DNA of 64,000 bases from Kordiimonas sp. SCSIO 12603 (lineage in GTDB: Bacteria; Pseudomonadota; Alphaproteobacteria; Sphingomonadales; Kordiimonadaceae), in contig NZ_CP073748.1 of NCBI RefSeq assembly GCF_024398035.1, positions 797,501-861,500 of the forward strand, given 5' to 3'. This document shows positions 1,240 through 13,224 of this stretch, piece by piece; within the stretch, counting starts at the first letter, position 1; every line of letters starts with the position of its first letter. A program made the translations under genes and the position numbers. The notes under the pieces are model-generated. The model did no database searches, was not told where the DNA came from, and saw only the letters and a list, made by a program, of their open reading frames with translations.

Positions 1240-1283
1240 AAGGCCACTTCCCGATCCACTCTCCGGGAAGTGGCCTTTTTTTG
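1240..1283 (+). terminator. Rho-independent terminator after the ALDH7 gene
   Basis: A 14-bp perfect stem (1240-1253 with 1264-1277) with a 10-nt loop is followed by a run of T. Confidence 0.9.
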
Positions 1284-1346
1284 GTTGATACTCTCAATTA
1301 GTAGGTTTATCGCTTAAAGGTTGAAAATGCACACATGGAGAAAATT

Positions 1347-1565
1347 ATGACTCAGGTTATCACTGAACTGACAACAGAAGAACTTAATTTAGTGGGAGGT
1401 GGGGGTGAAGATCTTGACCCGATCGAGGTTTTTACAACTTTTTTTAACGCTTTTAATCCTTTTTCCGGATTGGGTGGCGTCGGATCTGGAGGTAATTCAG
1501 AAAGAGACTACTTTATAAGAATAGATATTGATGTAGCTGGAATTGAGATTGATGTGGCGCTCTAG
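1347..1565 (+). CDS. Small peptide with double-glycine (bacteriocin-type) leader
   Basis: This is a 72-residue product. The start at 1347 is chosen because a GGAG sits at 1337-1340 with 6-nt spacing; the in-frame ATG at 1335 has no such site. The N-terminus reads ELTTEELNLVGG, matching the LSxxELxxIxGG leader that C39-peptidase ABC exporters cut after the second Gly. The predicted core (about 53 residues) is rich in Gly, Phe and Asp and has no Cys, so it is not a lanthipeptide or disulfide bacteriocin. No C39 exporter or modifying enzyme lies nearby; the next operon is an ABC transporter fused to an aminopeptidase. Function is unknown: a bacteriocin-like or signalling peptide is an inference from the leader alone. 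Confidence 0.6.
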   Translation: MTQVITELTTEELNLVGGGGEDLDPIEVFTTFFNAFNPFSGLGGVGSGGNSERDYFIRIDIDVAGIEIDVAL

Positions 1566-1830
1566 TGTTTTGAGAAGAGTGTATCGTTATACTAGATAAT
1601 TATCTCTAAGGGGCCTGAAGTAACATAGTCATCAGATTTAGTTGTTTGGTGGCTTTTTTTTGTGAATTGACAAATTATTATTGTTTTACGATAAGGTATT
1701 TTAATTGCAACTTTGGTTGTAAGGTTTTTGAAAAACAATAGACTGCTATAGCAGTAGGATGGCCAAGAATAAGTAAAGAGTATGCTGGAAAACCAGCCGC
1801 GGCCCGGGCACAGTACAGAGAGGATACAAA

Positions 1831-2739
1831 ATGTTGTCGATTAAAAATTTGAGCCACACCTATCCAAATGGTGTGAAGGCTCTTAATAACCTGAATCTGG
1901 AAGTTCCTAAGGGAATGTTTGGTCTGTTGGGGCCAAACGGCGCTGGTAAATCAAGCCTAATGCGCACAATTTCCACCCTTCAGCAGCCAACAGAAGGCAG
2001 CATTACATTTGGTGGTGTGGATGTGCTCAAAGAACCTGATGCACTTCGCCGTGTTCTTGGTTATCTGCCGCAAGATTTTGGTGTGTATCCACGTACATCT
2101 GCTTATGACATGCTTGATCATATGGCTGTCCTAAAAGGTATCACGAATAAAAAAGAGCGTAAGGAAGTGGTGGAAGGCCTATTGAACCAGACCAACCTTT
2201 TTGCGGCTCGTAAGAAAAACCTCAGCACTTACTCAGGTGGTATGCGCCAACGCTTTGGTATTGCACAGGCACTGATCGGTGATCCTCAATTGATTATTGT
2301 GGATGAGCCAACAGCAGGCCTTGATCCTGAAGAACGCAACCGTTTCCACAATCTTCTTGCAGAAATTGGTGAAAATGTTGTGGTTATTCTTTCCACACAT
2401 ATTGTGGAAGATGTTGCTGATCTTTGCCCGAATATGGTGATTATCAACAGCGGTACGATTGTAGCGGGCGGTAAGCCAGGTGACTTGATTGCAAGCCTTA
2501 ATGGCAAAATCTGGAAGAAAGCAATCAAGCGCACTGAAGTGGATGCCTTTAAAGAAAGCCATGCAGTTATTTCAAGCCGGCTTGTGGCTGGTGATACGGT
2601 TATCCGCGTACTTTCTGAAGGTGAACCAACTGGTGGGTTTGAGCAGGTTGAGGCCGACCTTGAGGATGTTTACTTCTCCAAGCTTTATGAAAGCCGTATC
2701 GGTAATGCTGGTGCCACACCAGCGTCTGCCGCAGCATAA
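1831..2739 (+). CDS. ABC transporter ATP-binding protein
   Basis: A 302-residue cytoplasmic ATPase of the ABC-2 exporter type. Walker A (GPNGAGKSS, near residues 34-42), the signature motif (YSGGMRQR) and Walker B with the D-loop (IIVDEPTAGLDPEE) are all intact. An RBS-like GAGAGGA precedes the ATG. The next gene, 24 nt downstream, encodes its permease fused to a peptidase, so the two form one transporter operon. The transported substrate cannot be read from the sequence. Confidence 0.9.
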   Translation: MLSIKNLSHTYPNGVKALNNLNLEVPKGMFGLLGPNGAGKSSLMRTISTLQQPTEGSITFGGVDVLKEPDALRRVLGYLPQDFGVYPRTSAYDMLDHMAVLKGITNKKERKEVVEGLLNQTNLFAARKKNLSTYSGGMRQRFGIAQALIGDPQLIIVDEPTAGLDPEERNRFHNLLAEIGENVVVILSTHIVEDVADLCPNMVIINSGTIVAGGKPGDLIASLNGKIWKKAIKRTEVDAFKESHAVISSRLVAGDTVIRVLSEGEPTGGFEQVEADLEDVYFSKLYESRIGNAGATPASAAA

Positions 2740-6413: not shown

Positions 6414-6459
6414 TATTTTATGGCCATGCTACAGTCATTTTGAACTTGCATAAATTAAC

Positions 6460-6479
6460 ATATCCAATATTCTGGATAT
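6460..6479 (+). promoter_or_regulatory. Probable ArsR operator abutting the arsR start codon
   Basis: A perfect 7-bp inverted repeat, ATATCCA-N6-TGGATAT, ends at the base before the arsR ATG. Its place and symmetry suit a winged-helix dimer repressing its own operon. Binding is inferred. Confidence 0.5.
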
Positions 6480-6812
6480 ATGGATAAAAATGATTCTTTA
6501 AAAGCGTTAAATGCTCTGTCTAACGAGACACGGCTTGATGTATTCCGCCTTCTGGTAAAGGCGGGTGAAGCTGGTATGCCAGCTGGTGCAATTTCGGAAG
6601 AGCTAGGTATTGTGCAAAACACAATGTCTTCCGGTCTTTCTATTCTCGCCGCAGCAGGGCTTATCCGTGGTGATCGGGAAGGGCGGTCTATCCGTTATTA
6701 CGCGGAGATGGATGGCATGCGCGGCTTACTGGCGTTTTTGATGGAAGACTGTTGTGGCGGCAATCCAGAAACCTGTGCGCCGCTTCTTAGTGAATTAACC
6801 CCCAAGTGTTGA
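6480..6812 (+). CDS. arsR: ArsR-type arsenite-responsive repressor
   Basis: A 110-residue winged-helix protein of the ArsR/SmtB family. The recognition region reads ISEELGIVQNTMSSGLSIL. The C-terminus has Cys91, Cys92 and Cys99 (motif CCGGNPETC), resembling the C-terminal As(III) site of the Acidithiobacillus-type ArsR rather than the helix-3 CVC site of plasmid ArsR. It is the first gene of arsR-acr3-arsH and would release the operator when arsenite binds. There is no clear Shine-Dalgarno in front of the ATG because the operator-like palindrome fills that space. Confidence 0.85.
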   Translation: MDKNDSLKALNALSNETRLDVFRLLVKAGEAGMPAGAISEELGIVQNTMSSGLSILAAAGLIRGDREGRSIRYYAEMDGMRGLLAFLMEDCCGGNPETCAPLLSELTPKC

Positions 6813-6824
6813 TCGGATTTACTC

Positions 6825-7895
6825 ATGGCAACTGATACTGTTATGCCAACTGAAGCGCCTGCTGGCGGCATTGGTTTCTTTGAAAAGTGGCTTTCTCTGT
6901 GGGTGGCGATTTGTATTGCTGCGGGCATTGGGTTGGGTAGCTTTTTCCCAAGCGTTTTTGAAACGCTTGCAAGCCTTGAATATGCGTCCGTGAACCTGGT
7001 GGTGGCCGTACTTATTTGGGCAATGGTTTATCCGATGATGGTGAATGTGGATTTCGCCAGTCTTCGGTATATTGGGGATCGTCCTAAAGGCCTTGTGGTT
7101 ACTATTCTTGTAAACTGGCTAGTGAAGCCCTTCAGCATGGCAGCCCTTGGTGTGTTGTTCTTTGAAGGCGTGTTCGCGGATATGATCAGCCCTTCAGATG
7201 CGCAGGAATATATCGCTGGTTTGATCCTTTTGGGTGCTGCGCCTTGTACGGCAATGGTGTTTGTCTGGAGCCAGATGACAAAAGGGGATGCGACATACAC
7301 CTTGGTGCAGGTTTCCGTAAATGATGTGATTATGATCTTCGCCTTCGCCCCGATCGTGGCATTCTTGCTTGGCGTGACAGATATCACTGTGCCGTGGGAT
7401 ACGCTTCTGATCTCTGTGGGGCTTTATGTGATTATTCCGCTTGCCGCGGGTGCTCTCACCCGGAAGGTGTTGATTAAAAACGATGGTAATACCTCAGCCG
7501 TTGATAAGTTCACGGGTTCTGTGAAGCCTTTCTCAATCATTGGCTTATTAGGTACCGTCGTATTGCTCTTTGGTTTTCAGGGGCAGATTATTTTAGAAAG
7601 GCCCGTTCTGATAGCCATTATTGCGGTTCCGCTTCTCATACAGTCCTACGGCATTTTTATTATTGCATACGGTGCAGCGTGGTTGTGGCGCATTCCGTTT
7701 AATGTGGCGGCACCTTGTGCACTTATCGGTACATCCAACTTTTTTGAACTTGCTGTTGCTGTGGCGATCAGTCTCTTTGGACTTCATTCTGGTGCGGCGT
7801 TGGCAACAGTGGTTGGTGTGCTTGTAGAAGTACCGGTAATGCTGTCGCTTGTAGCACTTGCAAACGCAACACGTGGTTATTTTGCAGCTGAGTAA
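6825..7895 (+). CDS. acr3: ACR3-family arsenite efflux permease
   Basis: A 356-residue, strongly hydrophobic protein with about ten membrane segments, matching the ACR3 family length. The segment [13 protein letters not shown] carries the conserved Cys141 needed for As(III) export in characterised ACR3 proteins. It starts 12 nt after arsR and is followed by arsH. It would export arsenite across the inner membrane using the proton-motive force. No ATPase subunit or arsenate reductase is present in this cassette. Confidence 0.92.
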
Positions 7896-7921
7896 TAAGG
7901 GTTTTGGTTAGGAGTTTGATC

Positions 7922-8641
7922 ATGTCTGAATTTGATATGCAGAATATTCACGAAGATAGTTGGAAGACCATTGATGAAACGGCATTGTTTGCTCCTGATC
8001 AGGTAGGGCATAAGCCTAGAATTCTGCTGCTTTATGGATCGCTTAGAAAGCGTTCGTTTAGCCGGTTGGTTACAGAGGAAGCAGCTCGCATTCTAGAGCG
8101 CTTCGGGGCTGAGGTAAAAACCTTCAATCCAAGCGGGCTTCCACTTCCTGATGATGATGTAGATGAAAGCCACGAAAAGGTTCAAGAACTGCGTGATATG
8201 GTGCAGTGGAGTGAAGGCATGGTGTGGTGTTCACCAGAGCGCCACGGCAGCATGACAGGGATTATGAAGTCTCAAATTGATTGGATACCGCTTTCTCTTG
8301 GTGCTGTAAGACCAACACAGGGTAAAACATTAGCTGTTATGCAGGTGTGCGGTGGTTCACAGTCCTTCAATGCTGTGAACCAGCTCCGCATCCTTGGGCG
8401 CTGGATGCGCATGATTACTATTCCGAACCAATCTTCTGTAGCGAAAGCTTTTCTTGAGTTTGATGATAACGATCGCATGAAGCCTTCTGGTTATTACGAC
8501 CGTATTGTGGATGTGATGGAAGAACTGGTTAAATTCACGCTGTTGACACGTGGTCGTTCTGATTATCTGGTGGATAGATACAGTGAGCGTAAAGAAAGCG
8601 CTGAAGAGCTAATGGCTAGAGTGAATCAGCGTAAATTGTAG
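7922..8641 (+). CDS. arsH: ArsH, NADPH-dependent FMN reductase / organoarsenical oxidase
   Basis: 239 residues. The ATG at 7922 is preferred over a TTG 18 nt upstream because AGGAG lies at 7910-7914 with 7-nt spacing. The flavodoxin-like nucleotide-binding start ([14 protein letters not shown]) and the [18 protein letters not shown] block are characteristic of ArsH. In the family it oxidises trivalent organoarsenicals or reduces quinones and metals with FMN and NADPH. It closes the arsenic cassette. Confidence 0.92.
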
Positions 8642-8734
8642 GCATTTTGCAATCTAAACCATGTAAACGATCCTTGCATTTCAAGTGTGATTTAGACAGT
8701 ATCACGCGGTTGTTCAGTGGTCAGGGATCGTTTC

Positions 8735-9481
8735 ATGTTGAAGGCTTTTCAGCTTTTCTTTTCTATGATGTCTTTGCTTGTGCTGGAGTACACAGCACAT
8801 GCAGATGATAAAATTACTATCGCTATTGATGGCGGTATCCCTCCTTATGTTTACCCTGATAGTAAAGAGGGTATCGACGTTGATATCATAAGGAAAGCTG
8901 CGGAACTTGGCGGGCTTTCAATTGATTTTCTCGTTTCTCCTTATAACCGAGTTGAGCGCCTTTTAATTGATAAGAAGGTTCAGGCTGCAGTTAGTTATAC
9001 TCCGAATTCAGCCTACGGTGCGGTTTCCATGCCTATTCGGTATTGGCATGATGGGCTTATCATTCGGCGCGGTGTGGATTTCTCCAGAGAGAACTGGGGA
9101 AACCTGAAATGGGGAACTTTCCCCGCCGTAGAAGCTTCTTTGGGTGAAGAAATCAGAGAGTTGTTGCCTTACCTAAAAGCAGCAGAAATCATTGATAATA
9201 CTCCTCAAGCCACCCGAATGATGCATGCAGGCCGGATGGATGCATATGTGGGAGATTTGGTTGCGTTCAAACATTATTTTGAAGGCCTGCGATCTGAAGA
9301 GGGTGGCGAGGATTTTGAAGTTATCCAGATTTACAAGCCTGTTCCTTATTATTTGATGTTTGTGAAACCTGCTAACAGAGACGCCTTTAACCGTGGTTTA
9401 AAAACTCTAAAAGAGAGCGGCCAGTATGATTGGATATGGGCGAAGCATATCTTGTTTGGCATTCAATCGGCGCAATTTTAA
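8735..9481 (+). CDS. Periplasmic substrate-binding protein, family 3-like
   Basis: 248 residues starting at the ATG with AGGGA 7 nt upstream. The N-terminus is a signal peptide ending near the AHAD residues. The mature part resembles bacterial extracellular solute-binding family 3 (polar amino-acid binders): an initial beta strand with ITIAIDGGIPPYVY, then DVDIIRKAAELG, and a C-terminal lobe with MDAYVGDLVAFKHY. No transporter genes flank it, so it may be a stand-alone sensor or orphan binding protein. The ligand is unknown. Confidence 0.7.
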   Translation: MLKAFQLFFSMMSLLVLEYTAHADDKITIAIDGGIPPYVYPDSKEGIDVDIIRKAAELGGLSIDFLVSPYNRVERLLIDKKVQAAVSYTPNSAYGAVSMPIRYWHDGLIIRRGVDFSRENWGNLKWGTFPAVEASLGEEIRELLPYLKAAEIIDNTPQATRMMHAGRMDAYVGDLVAFKHYFEGLRSEEGGEDFEVIQIYKPVPYYLMFVKPANRDAFNRGLKTLKESGQYDWIWAKHILFGIQSAQF

Positions 9482-9779
9482 GCTCTTTTTTCTCGTAAAA
9501 ATAGCATTATCTATTGGTTTAAATCCTATAGGTTATAGCCTTAGTGTGATCATATAACCTTGGATTGTGTACTTTGTTGCGCAATTGTCACAAAATGTGA
9601 AACATATGTAAAAAACAAAGACATATATTCTCATATTATGTCGTAATTTATTGGCGCTACTGTCTTTTCCCTCGCATAGTTTTTTCCGTGATGCACCGCT
9701 TGGTGGGGAGTGGCCGAATGGCGTGTATCTGTGTGCATAAAAATGAAAAACTAAAAACAAACTAAGAAGGTAGGATCCT
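9482..9779. promoter_or_regulatory. AT-rich upstream region of the TonB receptor gene
   Basis: This 298-nt stretch has no plausible gene. It contains a small dyad TCACA-AAA-TGTGA at 9588-9600, a possible operator. A GAAGG ribosome-binding site lies just before the downstream ATG. Confidence 0.35.
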
Positions 9780-12182
9780 ATGAAAAAGCATACAGCTGTC
9801 TGCATGAAAAGTGTTTCAGCGATTGCGTTGATGGCAACTGGTTTAATAGCCCCCTCTGTTGCCGCTCAGGATGAATATTCGCTCGAAGAAATCGTTGTAA
9901 CTGCAACAAAACGCGCGTCCAGTATTCAAGACGTTCCATTCTCTATTAATGCCCAGTCACAGGCCGATATTCAGCGTTCCGGTGCGAAAAATATTGAGGA
10001 CCTTTCAAGGAATATTGCTGGTCTTACGATCCAGAATTTAGGCCCAGGCCAAAGTCAGGTTTCCATCCGCGGTGTATCTGCGGGCCAGATTGTGCGTGAC
10101 CAGCCGGGTGTTAAAGAGCAGGTTGGTGTGTACTTGGACGAATCTGTGATCTCGCTCTCACTCTTTACGCCAGATCTGGATTTTTATGATCTGAACCGTG
10201 TTGAAACACTTCGTGGCCCTCAAGGGACTTTATTCGGTTCTGGCTCTATTGGTGGTACGATCCGTTACATCACAAACCAGCCAAATGTTGAAGAATTTGA
10301 AGGTAGCGCTGAAATTGACCTGAACCAGATTGATGGTGGTGGTTTTGGTGGTTCCGCTAAAGGTATGATTAACGTGCCATTCGGTGATGGTTTAGGTGCG
10401 TTCCGCGCGGTTGCTTACCATACCGAATATGGTGGTTATATCGATGCAATCCGTGAAGGTGGTACGATTGATGAAAATGTAAACAGCGGTAACCGCACGG
10501 GTGGTCGTCTGGCATTTACATTCAAACCTTCAGATACGGTGACTATTACCCCTCGCATTATTTACCAAGAGATTGATACAGATGGCTTTAACCGTCAGGA
10601 AGTATTTAATCTCTATGCAAATCCATTCACAGATGCATCTGCTGAAGGTGGCCGCGCACCGGTAACTTTTGAAGAACGCCAGCAGTTCCTTCTGCTTGAT
10701 GAAGGCTTTAAAGATGAAACATTGATTGCAGACCTGAATATTGAAGTTGGATTTGATGGCTTTGATGTAACAGCAATTTCTAGCTATACAGACCGTGATA
10801 TTCTTGTAAGCCGTGATGCAAGCGCGCTTACGGGTAGTGTATCTGTAGATCTTGGTTTCCCTGATGAAGCTGTTCTGCTCCCATCCAATCTTCGGGATTC
10901 TACAAAAGTAGAGCAGTTCACGCAGGAACTTCGTTTCTCGTCAAATGGTGATGGCCCATTCCAGTGGATTATTGGTGGTTTCTATTCAAACACTGATCGT
11001 TTCTATCAGCAGTTCCTTCCAACACCAGGCTATGATGCATTCACAGATCAAGTATTAGGTGCTGGTACAGCTGAGGCAACACGTGCTGGCGTTGGGCCTG
11101 CGGATTCTCCGTTCTTCTCTGAGCTACCGTACACGCTTGAACAAATCGCTGTATTTGGTGAGGTAAGTTACGATGTAACCGACCGCTTAAACATTACTGT
11201 GGGTGGTCGTTACTATGATTATGATGAAGAACGTGAAATTGATCAGGTTGGCCTATTCGGTTCTGGTACAGTTGATCAGGTAGATTCTACGTCCTCAAAC
11301 GGTTTCACACCTCGTTTCCTTTTGAGCTATGACCTGACTGAAGAAGTAACTTTGAATGCACAGGCATCTAAAGGCTTCCGTCTTGGTGGTGTAAATGATC
11401 CACTGAACACCCCGCTATGTAACCCGGAAGATTTGGATACATTCGGTAGTTTCCAGAACTATGATGATGAAACGCTTTGGAACTATGAAGTAGGTGTGAA
11501 AGTTAACACTGGTAATATCTCCTTCAATGCTGCTGCATTCTATAACGATATCTCCAATCTTCAGGTAACACTTGATGCGGGCTCATGTTCTTCTCGTATT
11601 ACCTTTAACGTTGAAGAGGCTCACACACTTGGTGTGGAGGCTGAATTCAAGGCACGTCTGTTTGATGGTTTTGATGTATCTTTCGCGGGTAGTGTTCTAG
11701 AGGCAGAGTTTGACTCTACTGTAACAAGTGCTGGCGCTGTTCTTGGTGGCGTGCGTGAAGGTAACCGCCTGGCGTCAACACCAGAATATAACTTCGGTAC
11801 AACAGCAAGCTATACATTCCCGTTCGAGATTGCGGGTGACGGTGTTGAAGCATATGTAGCGGGTACATTCTCTGTACGCGGTAGTATCTTTACACAGCCA
11901 TCTGATCAGGAAGCGTCTGGTGATTTCGTGTCGAACCTAGCGTTTGGTGGCGCTTCTGGCACGGATGTGACATCCGTAGACCTTGAGCTGGATTCATATA
12001 AAACTGCGAACCTGAGCTTCGGTATCTTCAAAGATGAATGGGAATTTGTTCTCTATGTGAATAACATCTTTGATGAAAACGCGAATCTCTCGTTTGATCG
12101 TGAGCGTGGTGGCCGTGCCCGTCTTGGCTTCCGTACGAACCAACCACGTACATTTGGTGCAGTTTACCGCATCAACTTCTAA
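9780..12182 (+). CDS. TonB-dependent receptor
   Basis: 800 residues. A signal peptide is followed by a TonB box (EEIVVTA, near residue 40). A plug domain with the IRGV and LRGPQGTLFGSGSIGGTIRYIT motifs and a C-terminal beta barrel ending in Phe complete the family pattern. It is an outer-membrane active-transport gate. The ligand cannot be assigned; the look is of the large iron-complex/OMR group common in marine alphaproteobacteria. It is monocistronic, with a terminator immediately after. Confidence 0.9.
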   Translation: MKKHTAVCMKSVSAIALMATGLIAPSVAAQDEYSLEEIVVTATKRASSIQDVPFSINAQSQADIQRSGAKNIEDLSRNIAGLTIQNLGPGQSQVSIRGVSAGQIVRDQPGVKEQVGVYLDESVISLSLFTPDLDFYDLNRVETLRGPQGTLFGSGSIGGTIRYITNQPNVEEFEGSAEIDLNQIDGGGFGGSAKGMINVPFGDGLGAFRAVAYHTEYGGYIDAIREGGTIDENVNSGNRTGGRLAFTFKPSDTVTITPRIIYQEIDTDGFNRQEVFNLYANPFTDASAEGGRAPVTFEERQQFLLLDEGFKDETLIADLNIEVGFDGFDVTAISSYTDRDILVSRDASALTGSVSVDLGFPDEAVLLPSNLRDSTKVEQFTQELRFSSNGDGPFQWIIGGFYSNTDRFYQQFLPTPGYDAFTDQVLGAGTAEATRAGVGPADSPFFSELPYTLEQIAVFGEVSYDVTDRLNITVGGRYYDYDEEREIDQVGLFGSGTVDQVDSTSSNGFTPRFLLSYDLTEEVTLNAQASKGFRLGGVNDPLNTPLCNPEDLDTFGSFQNYDDETLWNYEVGVKVNTGNISFNAAAFYNDISNLQVTLDAGSCSSRITFNVEEAHTLGVEAEFKARLFDGFDVSFAGSVLEAEFDSTVTSAGAVLGGVREGNRLASTPEYNFGTTASYTFPFEIAGDGVEAYVAGTFSVRGSIFTQPSDQEASGDFVSNLAFGGASGTDVTSVDLELDSYKTANLSFGIFKDEWEFVLYVNNIFDENANLSFDRERGGRARLGFRTNQPRTFGAVYRINF

Positions 12183-12206
12183 ATAGGTCGAATAGAAAAA
12201 TAAGAG

Positions 12207-12235
12207 GGCGGTGCCAATTGGTGCCGCCTTTTTCT
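12207..12235 (+). terminator. Terminator after the TonB receptor
   Basis: A stem GGCGGTGCC / GGTGCCGCC (two G-U pairs) with an AATT loop is followed by TTTTTC. Confidence 0.75.
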
Positions 12236-12303
12236 TTTGCCTGTTTCACGCGCGTGTAATAGTTGCTTGTATCAATTCAGGAAATATAGATGCGGGAAAT
12301 ACT

Positions 12304-13224
12304 ATGCCAAAAAATCCATATATTGCCGTTATCAGTAATCCTGCCGCTGGACAGCGGAGTGGGCCTTTTCTGTGGGGGGTTATTAATCGCCTTAAGAAGA
12401 AAGGCGCTAAAGTTGATCTTATTGTAACTGAGGCACCAGGCCATGCCGTGAAACTGGCAGCTGATTTGAGTACCGAGGGCAGCGTAGATTTAATAGTGGC
12501 TGCAGGTGGCGATGGTACGCTTAGAGAAGTGGCTGAAGGGTTAAACGGTAGCGATGTACCGCTTGGTATTATTCCGGCTGGTACAGCTAATGTGATGGCG
12601 CGGGAACTCGGCTATATGAAAAAAGGCGTAAAATCCGTTAAGCGCGTTTCTAAAATCCTTCTGAAAAATCGAAAACGTCCTGTTTATCCATTTCAACTTG
12701 CTCATGAAGGTAAAAGCACCATCGGCCTTTGTTGGCTGGGAGCCGGGTTTGATGCTGCAGTTCTGCAGTATGTAAACCCGTGGATGAAATCGAAGATTGG
12801 CAGGGCTGCGTTTGCACCTGCTATGATCAAAACTATGATTAAAGAGCCTCGCAAGCCTTCGGTACCGTGGCAATCGGGTGATACAACAGGGGTGGCAGGT
12901 TGGATCATCCTTGCAAATATTGCGAAATATGCTGGGCCTTTTGTGCTTACTGAGAAAACGGCCGTAGATCAGCGGGGATTAGCTTGGTTGCGGTTTAAAA
13001 AGGTCGGGGCGATCGCGCGTCTTGTTGATCAAATACTATTACCTTTCAAGCCTCTTGATGTTCGAGGTGAAACACAAGAACTGTTGTCAGGGGAGGTAAT
13101 AATTGGTGATGGTAATACACCTATTCAATTGGATGGTGATTTGATCGGGTTTGGCCCGGTATCGGTTCAGTCGCAGGAAAAGCCGATTATGTTCAAGGCA
13201 GGAGAAGTTAATTCACGCTCTTGA
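12304..13224 (+). CDS. Diacylglycerol/lipid kinase family protein (YegS/BmrU-like)
   Basis: 306 residues from the ATG at 12304, preceded by GGGA. The open frame extends upstream but through the preceding terminator. The catalytic nucleotide-binding motifs are clear: ISNPAAGQ near the start, AAGGDGTLREVAEGL, and IPAGTANVMAREL. The family phosphorylates diacylglycerol or related lipids with ATP at the inner membrane. The 3' end overlaps the convergent DUF2794 gene by 17 bp. Confidence 0.85.
   Translation: MPKNPYIAVISNPAAGQRSGPFLWGVINRLKKKGAKVDLIVTEAPGHAVKLAADLSTEGSVDLIVAAGGDGTLREVAEGLNGSDVPLGIIPAGTANVMARELGYMKKGVKSVKRVSKILLKNRKRPVYPFQLAHEGKSTIGLCWLGAGFDAAVLQYVNPWMKSKIGRAAFAPAMIKTMIKEPRKPSVPWQSGDTTGVAGWIILANIAKYAGPFVLTEKTAVDQRGLAWLRFKKVGAIARLVDQILLPFKPLDVRGETQELLSGEVIIGDGNTPIQLDGDLIGFGPVSVQSQEKPIMFKAGEVNSRS

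What the first reader, a model, noticed from the sequence alone, without database searches (positions are those of the whole stretch)
1347..1565. Double-glycine leader peptide of unknown type
The 72-residue product starts with a leader matching the GG consensus (ELTTEELNLVGG) and has a good ribosome-binding site. The core lacks Cys and is Gly/Phe/Asp-rich. Neighbours do not include a C39 exporter; the adjacent operon is an ABC exporter fused to an M1 aminopeptidase, which would be an unusual processing partner. The link between the two is speculation.
Basis: partly seen in the sequence, partly recalled or inferred. Interest (0 to 1): 0.55.

Follow-up and report, generated by a model that had tools for sequence, protein, structure and literature searches.

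The report
Orphan secreted peptide, exporter elsewhere
A marine bacterium carries a lone gene for a small peptide with an export tag that fits an export machine encoded elsewhere in its chromosome, and its closest sequenced relative lacks that gene; this is most likely one more secreted bacteriocin-like peptide, with no link to the neighbouring transporter genes.

Summary
The ORF is real (1347-1565, 72 aa) and its double-glycine leader is far better than chance. The genome (a Kordiimonas close to K. laminariae) does have C39 exporters, two of them, about 650-670 kb away. One sits with a HlyD protein and peptides whose leaders (LNQTELDLVNGA, LNLIELDLVNGA) nearly match this one, and it is the probable exporter in trans. 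The second serves a basic-leader radical-SAM precursor and fits worse. The suggested link to the ABC/M1-aminopeptidase operon fails. The sister species has the same aldehyde dehydrogenase and ABC genes but lacks exactly the 379-bp peptide unit, which lies between two 14-bp terminator U-tract repeats. None of the 8 other genus genomes with the ATPase orthologue has a GG peptide there. The ABC operon has its own conserved upstream element downstream of the peptide. No relative of the core was found anywhere searched. Best reading: an orphan, lineage-variable, unmodified bacteriocin- or microcin-like cargo. Export in trans is well supported by inference. The antagonistic function is a guess, since no immunity gene is adjacent.

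The parts
1347..1565 (+). Precursor peptide gene, 72 aa, MTQVITELTTEELNLVGGG|GEDLDPIEVF...IEIDVAL
   Evidence: translation; coding score; leader matrix
1347..1403 (+). Leader, 19 aa; L at -12, E at -8, L at -7, V at -4, G at -2 and -1 (cut after the third Gly inferred)
   Evidence: 17.0 bits in this register, -4.0 one residue earlier
1404..1562 (+). Core, 53 aa, acidic (10 D/E, 2 R), no Cys, ends in alternating FIRIDIDVAGIEIDVAL
   Evidence: composition; no relatives
1337..1340 (+). Shine-Dalgarno GGAG, 6 nt before ATG
   Evidence: sequence
1627..1661 (+). Terminator-like hairpin with U-tract that ends the peptide unit
1284..1662 (+). 379-bp unit absent from Kordiimonas laminariae (G003); equivalently 1270-1648
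   Evidence: alignment with the sister locus L016, junction read again
1270..1283 (+). Left copy of the 14-bp imperfect direct repeat GTGGCCTTTTTTTG, part of the aldehyde dehydrogenase terminator
1649..1662 (+). Right copy GTGGCTTTTTTTTG, part of the peptide terminator
1667..1694 (+). Probable own promoter/operator of the ABC operon: TTGACA ... TTTTACGATAA; the 11-mer is exact upstream of 6 of 9 orthologues
1831..2739 (+). ABC ATPase (neighbour, not part of the peptide system)
   Evidence: PF00005
2764..6357 (+). ABC-2 permease fused to a Peptidase_M1 domain (neighbour, not part of the peptide system)
   Evidence: PF12679 and PF01433

Best explanation
The gene encodes an unmodified secreted peptide precursor that is an orphan cargo of the C39 peptidase-containing ABC transporter (PCAT1) at C1:126922-129108, with the HlyD-type adaptor beside it and a TolC-like channel from elsewhere. 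PCAT1's C39 domain recognises the acidic leader in trans and cuts after the third glycine, and the 53-aa acidic core leaves the cell. The core most likely acts outward, as a bacteriocin- or microcin-like weapon in a fast-changing cargo repertoire. Shown here: the ORF, the leader, the two exporters, the leader match, the absence from the sister species. Inferred: export by PCAT1, cut site. Guess: antagonistic function (about 0.4 on its own).
For: Leader matrix: best of 577 window ORFs. The pattern E-L-[DN]-L-V-x-G-[GA] occurs 3 times in the 3.85-Mb genome against 0 for the reversed control: two peptides beside PCAT1 and this one. A looser pattern gives 15 matches (4 in the control), and of these 15 only the same three are near the start of a short ORF with a core. 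PCAT1 has C39, ABC_membrane and ABC_tran domains, with a HlyD protein next to it; OEP-family channels are present. The second exporter's likely precursor has a basic leader, LMKSHLKAVAGG, unlike this one. K. laminariae also has an orphan GG peptide away from its PCAT, next to an Rce1-like/CAAX membrane protein, so orphan cargo occurs in both sisters. Cargo at the PCAT1 locus also differs between the sisters.
Against: No expression data. No immunity-type gene in the 379-bp unit. No relative of the core, so no test of selection on it. The core is acidic and has no glycine zipper of three repeats, unlike Cdz proteins. The leader-to-PCAT1 match is by similarity only, and the training leaders vary widely (leave-one-out scores 2.2 to 25.3).
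Confidence: 0.65

Rival explanations
1. Same export route, but the peptide is a structural or signalling factor (biofilm matrix, surface amyloid, cell-cell signal) and not a weapon.
For: Synechococcus EbfG1-4 are GG-motif peptides needed for biofilm and secreted with the C39 protein PteB (PMC4997328, passages). No immunity gene is adjacent here. The C-terminus FIRIDIDVAGIEIDVAL alternates hydrophobic and charged residues like a strand pair (sequence).
Against: Presence in only one of two sister species and no relatives suits a variable weapon better than a housekeeping matrix protein. The single-sequence fold is uninformative (mean pLDDT 45).
Confidence: 0.25
2. The adjacent ABC/M1-aminopeptidase operon processes or exports the peptide.
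For: Adjacency and same strand only.
Against: The operon is present without the peptide in K. laminariae. 0 of 8 other genus genomes with an ATPase orthologue at E<=1e-80 have a GG peptide in the 1.5 kb upstream. A terminator lies between. The ABC operon has its own conserved upstream element after the insert. It has no C39 domain.
Confidence: 0.02
3. A relic: a cargo gene that still has its leader but is no longer expressed or useful, on its way out, as already lost in K. laminariae.
For: Lost or never gained in the sister. The 14-bp repeat would favour deletion by slippage. No immunity gene. No clear promoter: two 9-of-12 matches in the scanned region, 1.7 expected.
Against: Intact ORF, Shine-Dalgarno, coding signal and own terminator.
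Confidence: 0.15
4. The ORF is a chance open frame and the leader match a coincidence.
For: No homologue.
Against: Leader score 6.4 bits above the next of 577 ORFs; coding score above 2000 of 2000 shuffles; 0 control hits for the strict pattern in this genome.
Confidence: 0.03

Closest known systems
Class II microcins (e.g. microcin V with CvaB)
   Same: Short precursor with GG leader, C39 ABC exporter, HlyD-type adaptor and an OEP/TolC-type channel in the genome
   Different: Not next to the exporter; no adjacent immunity gene; acidic core; no match to families in Pfam, NCBIfam or PHROGs above cut-off
Cdz-like glycine-zipper bacteriocins of alphaproteobacteria
   Same: Alphaproteobacterial small peptide with a type I secretion system in the genome, patchy among close relatives
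   Different: No GxxxGxxxG zipper in the core; no immunity gene beside it
EbfG1-4 / PteB of Synechococcus elongatus
   Same: GG- or GA-leader peptides of 6-7 kDa after maturation, cores without homologues, C39 exporter
   Different: ebfG1-4 lie in one cotranscribed cluster whose last gene is numbered next to the exporter gene; this gene is alone
CTB family bacteriocin (NF038167)
   Same: Weak profile match over residues 1-51, E 0.0012
   Different: 19 bits against a curated cut-off of 32

Membership tests
Double-glycine leader peptides exported by PCATs | Leader with hydrophobic/acidic pattern ending GG, GA or GS near the N-terminus of a short ORF | tested here: met
   17.0 bits, best of 577 window ORFs
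Double-glycine leader peptides exported by PCATs | A C39 peptidase ABC exporter in the genome | tested here: met
   two complete ones and one fragment
Double-glycine leader peptides exported by PCATs | Cleavage after the double glycine and export | not testable with these tools
   needs mass spectrometry and exporter mutants
Class II microcins | Membrane fusion protein and TolC-type channel | tested here: met
   HlyD-family protein at L006:4622-5869; 9 OEP matches in the genome; that they work with PCAT1 is inferred
Class II microcins | Cognate immunity protein gene nearby | tested here: not met
   I see no second gene in the 379-bp unit; the flanks are shared with a sister that lacks the peptide
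Class II microcins | Antibacterial activity | not testable with these tools
   no assay
Cdz-like glycine-zipper bacteriocins | Extended GxxxGxxxG zipper in the core | tested here: not met
   read directly in the sequence
CTB family bacteriocin NF038167 | Score at or above the curated cut-off | tested here: not met
   19 against 32 bits
Integron gene cassette | attC-type core sites (GTTRRRY / RYYYAAC, recalled) at the insert ends | tested here: not met
   neither motif in 1261-1660; each is the other's reverse complement, so both strands are covered

The most novel reading that the evidence does not exclude
GG-peptide cargo genes move in and out of the chromosome as single terminator-bounded units that land at, or are lost between, the U-tracts of host terminators. 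A fixed PCAT exports whatever scattered cargo is present, so that even sister species differ in their orphan cargo: this peptide here, an unrelated GG peptide with a CAAX-type membrane protein in K. laminariae.
Probability: 0.2. Interest if true: 0.5.

Novelty: new member of a known kind. Interest (0 to 1): 0.3.

Why it matters
Searches for such peptides often look next to the exporter. This case shows cargo about 670 kb from a fitting C39 exporter, tied to it by scoring the leader against the exporter's own neighbours. It also gives a clean pair of sister species that differ by exactly one peptide unit at this site, a natural setting to test whether such a peptide is a weapon against close relatives.

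Tried and rejected
Homologues of the core: none in 19 genus genomes (7 of 19 had matches at E<=1; apart from the gene itself all had E>=0.03 and lay in frames of 283-930 aa), GTDB contigs, 396 genomes of the order (4 of 396 at E<=0.01: itself and three matches of E 0.005-0.006 in frames of 285-1400 aa), plasmids, phages, viral contigs, PHROGs, Pfam, PDB sequences (one match at E<=1, E 0.094, a DnaJ-like protein).

Among 123 GG-type ORFs called in 58 of 80 named PCAT loci, the best match to the whole peptide was a Shewanella schlegeliana peptide (E 3e-4 in that small set, 31% over 55 aa, carried mainly by the leader). The core alone gave nothing better than E 0.12. Some of those 123 are plainly not GG peptides (antisense or inside other genes); I did not curate them.

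Family-wide strict leader pattern: 7 matches in 29 genomes against 2 in the control. Of the 7, five are in short ORFs with a leader (three here, one in K. laminariae, one glycine-rich peptide in G019); two look like chance (G001 in a 268-aa frame, G016 antisense to a membrane protein by my reading).

Looser pattern over 19 genus genomes: the list was cut by the tool (from G015 on nearly all rows are missing). I read the context of the 29 loci L087-L115 from that call, and of 10 further places that I picked by eye (an eleventh fetched stretch repeats one of the 29). Only one new short-ORF leader appeared, in K. laminariae, plus one leader-like start on a 470-aa frame. So the count of orphans in the genus is a lower bound.

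Insertion or deletion: not decidable. Of the 9 genomes with the ATPase, I saw the aldehyde dehydrogenase beside the ABC operon only in two. The 14-bp repeat fits loss by slippage; absence from the rest of the genus fits gain. The 379-bp unit has no second copy in the genome. Integron origin rejected. Single-sequence fold prediction was useless, so I ran no fold search.

Full report
WHAT IS THERE. Window 1347-1565 encodes MTQVITELTTEELNLVGGGGEDLDPIEVFTTFFNAFNPFSGLGGVGSGGNSERDYFIRIDIDVAGIEIDVAL, with GGAG 6 nt before the ATG. Codon usage supports translation: 0.035 bits per codon against -0.90 +/- 0.25 in shuffles, 0 of 2000 reaching it, and -0.7 to -1.5 in the other five frames. A hairpin with a T-run ends the unit at 1627-1661. 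No convincing promoter was found; the consensus matches are what chance gives.

THE LEADER. I built a matrix from 17 leaders of peptides next to C39 exporters in the genus, leaving this one out. LTTEELNLVGGG scores 17.0 bits and ranks first of 577 short ORFs in the window (second 10.6). The best of 1031 short ORFs in loci without an exporter is 8.7. Leave-one-out scores of the training leaders run from 2.2 to 25.3. The register matters: cleavage after the third Gly puts L, E, L, V, G, G at -12, -8, -7, -4, -2, -1; one residue earlier the score is -4.0. The core would be 53 aa, about 5.67 kDa, pI 4.05.

THE EXPORTERS. The window lies at C1:797501-861500 of a 3.85-Mb, one-contig genome. Peptidase_C39 occurs at C1:126958 and C1:149169, with a fragment at C1:126226; 8 of 19 genus genomes have the domain. 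PCAT1 (L006:6923-9109) has C39, ABC_membrane and ABC_tran domains, and a HlyD-type adaptor lies at L006:4622-5869. Around it are four GG or GA precursors: L006:5959-6189, 6420-6602, 6703-6897 and 9699-9950. Two have leaders LNQTELDLVNGA and LNLIELDLVNGA. The strict DNA pattern for E-L-[DN]-L-V-x-G-[GA] hits this genome three times, control zero: these two and the window peptide. The second C39 exporter sits with a radical SAM protein closest to XyeB (below its cut-off: 270.5 of 450 bits) and an aKG-HExxH-type protein (60.2 bits, cut-off 40). Its likely precursor, MSSKTEKKKELTKLMKSHLKAVAGGAGHSSWNRTGRG (L007, minus strand from 12510), has a basic leader. PCAT1 is therefore the better candidate. 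OEP-family channels are present, none listed beside PCAT1.

NO LINK TO THE ABC/M1 OPERON. The ATPase has orthologues at E<=1e-80 in 9 of 19 genus genomes, this one included. In G003 the same aldehyde dehydrogenase precedes it, and the alignment shows a clean absence of 379 bp that holds exactly the peptide unit. The flanks differ at 54 of 900 and 28 of 900 positions, and the 176-bp stretch up to the ABC start at 1. In the other seven loci I saw no GG-like ORF in 1.5 kb upstream. The 11-mer TTTTACGATAA lies upstream of 6 of 9 orthologues, including this genome and K. laminariae; it lies after the insert, so the ABC operon probably has its own control region.

THE UNIT AND ITS ENDS. The 379-bp difference is bounded by GTGGCCTTTTTTTG (1270-1283) and GTGGCTTTTTTTTG (1649-1662), parts of two terminators; K. 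laminariae keeps one copy. This fits deletion by slippage in K. laminariae as well as gain here. No integron core sites were found, and there is no other copy in the genome.

SISTER SPECIES. K. laminariae has another orphan, MSGQIQELTFDEIDSVTGARGKLCSVAYSALEG..., on a contig other than its PCAT contig. It is followed by an Rce1-like/CAAX membrane protein (PF02517); that such proteins serve as bacteriocin immunity proteins is recalled. In the window's genome the corresponding place holds other DNA, with a 1099-aa repeat-rich frame. The PCAT1-side cargo also differs between the sisters; only the LNLIELDLVNGA peptide is clearly shared (92% identity).

FUNCTION. Class II microcins need precursor, immunity protein, PCAT, membrane fusion protein and TolC (PMC9746304, passages); [quoted passage not shown] Here the precursor, PCAT, fusion protein and channels are in the genome, and an immunity gene is not beside it. 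Cdz proteins of Caulobacter are secreted by a type I system, carry glycine zippers, and such systems are sometimes missing from closely related species (PMC5380434, passages); this core has no such zipper. EbfG1-4 of Synechococcus show that GG peptides with cores lacking homologues can serve biofilms (PMC4997328, passages). I put the orphan-cargo-of-PCAT1 reading at about 0.65, a weapon at about 0.4 and a matrix or signal role at about 0.25.

LITERATURE SEARCHED. Six searches. No listed paper treats a Kordiimonas bacteriocin (6 papers hold both words, five listed, each naming Kordiimonas once). Apart from the three papers above I read listings only. The early genome-wide survey of GG peptides in Gram-negative bacteria is known to me by recall and through its mention in PMC9746304.

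VERDICT. A real, lineage-variable orphan double-glycine peptide of a known kind. The missing exporter exists in the genome; the neighbouring ABC/M1 operon is a bystander.

Noticed in passing
L007 (C1:140000-156000): 7451-12510, minus strand: Second C39 exporter with a XyeB-like radical SAM protein, an aKG-HExxH-type protein, HlyD- and MacB-like proteins (the last two by reading) and a 37-aa GG precursor ending AGHSSWNRTGRG: looks like a cyclophane-type RiPP cluster.
   Followed up: partly
L006:6190-6900: A C39 fragment and two similar peptide genes with nearly identical upstream sequence lie before the intact PCAT1: looks like a duplication that added a cargo gene here but not in K. laminariae.
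   Followed up: partly
L210:2502-3272 (K. laminariae, G003:C24): Orphan GG peptide followed by an Rce1-like/CAAX membrane protein, absent from the matching place of the window's genome.
   Followed up: partly
window 1667-1694: TTGACA ... TTTTACGATAA upstream of the ABC/M1 operon; the 11-mer is exact in 6 of 9 genus orthologues, and the leader region differs at 1 of 176 positions from K. laminariae while the coding flanks differ at 3-6%.
   Followed up: partly
L209 about 2560, minus strand (G008:C30): A GG-like leader (LDDDELEGITGG) at the start of a 470-aa open frame, so possibly a large protein with such a leader.
   Followed up: no
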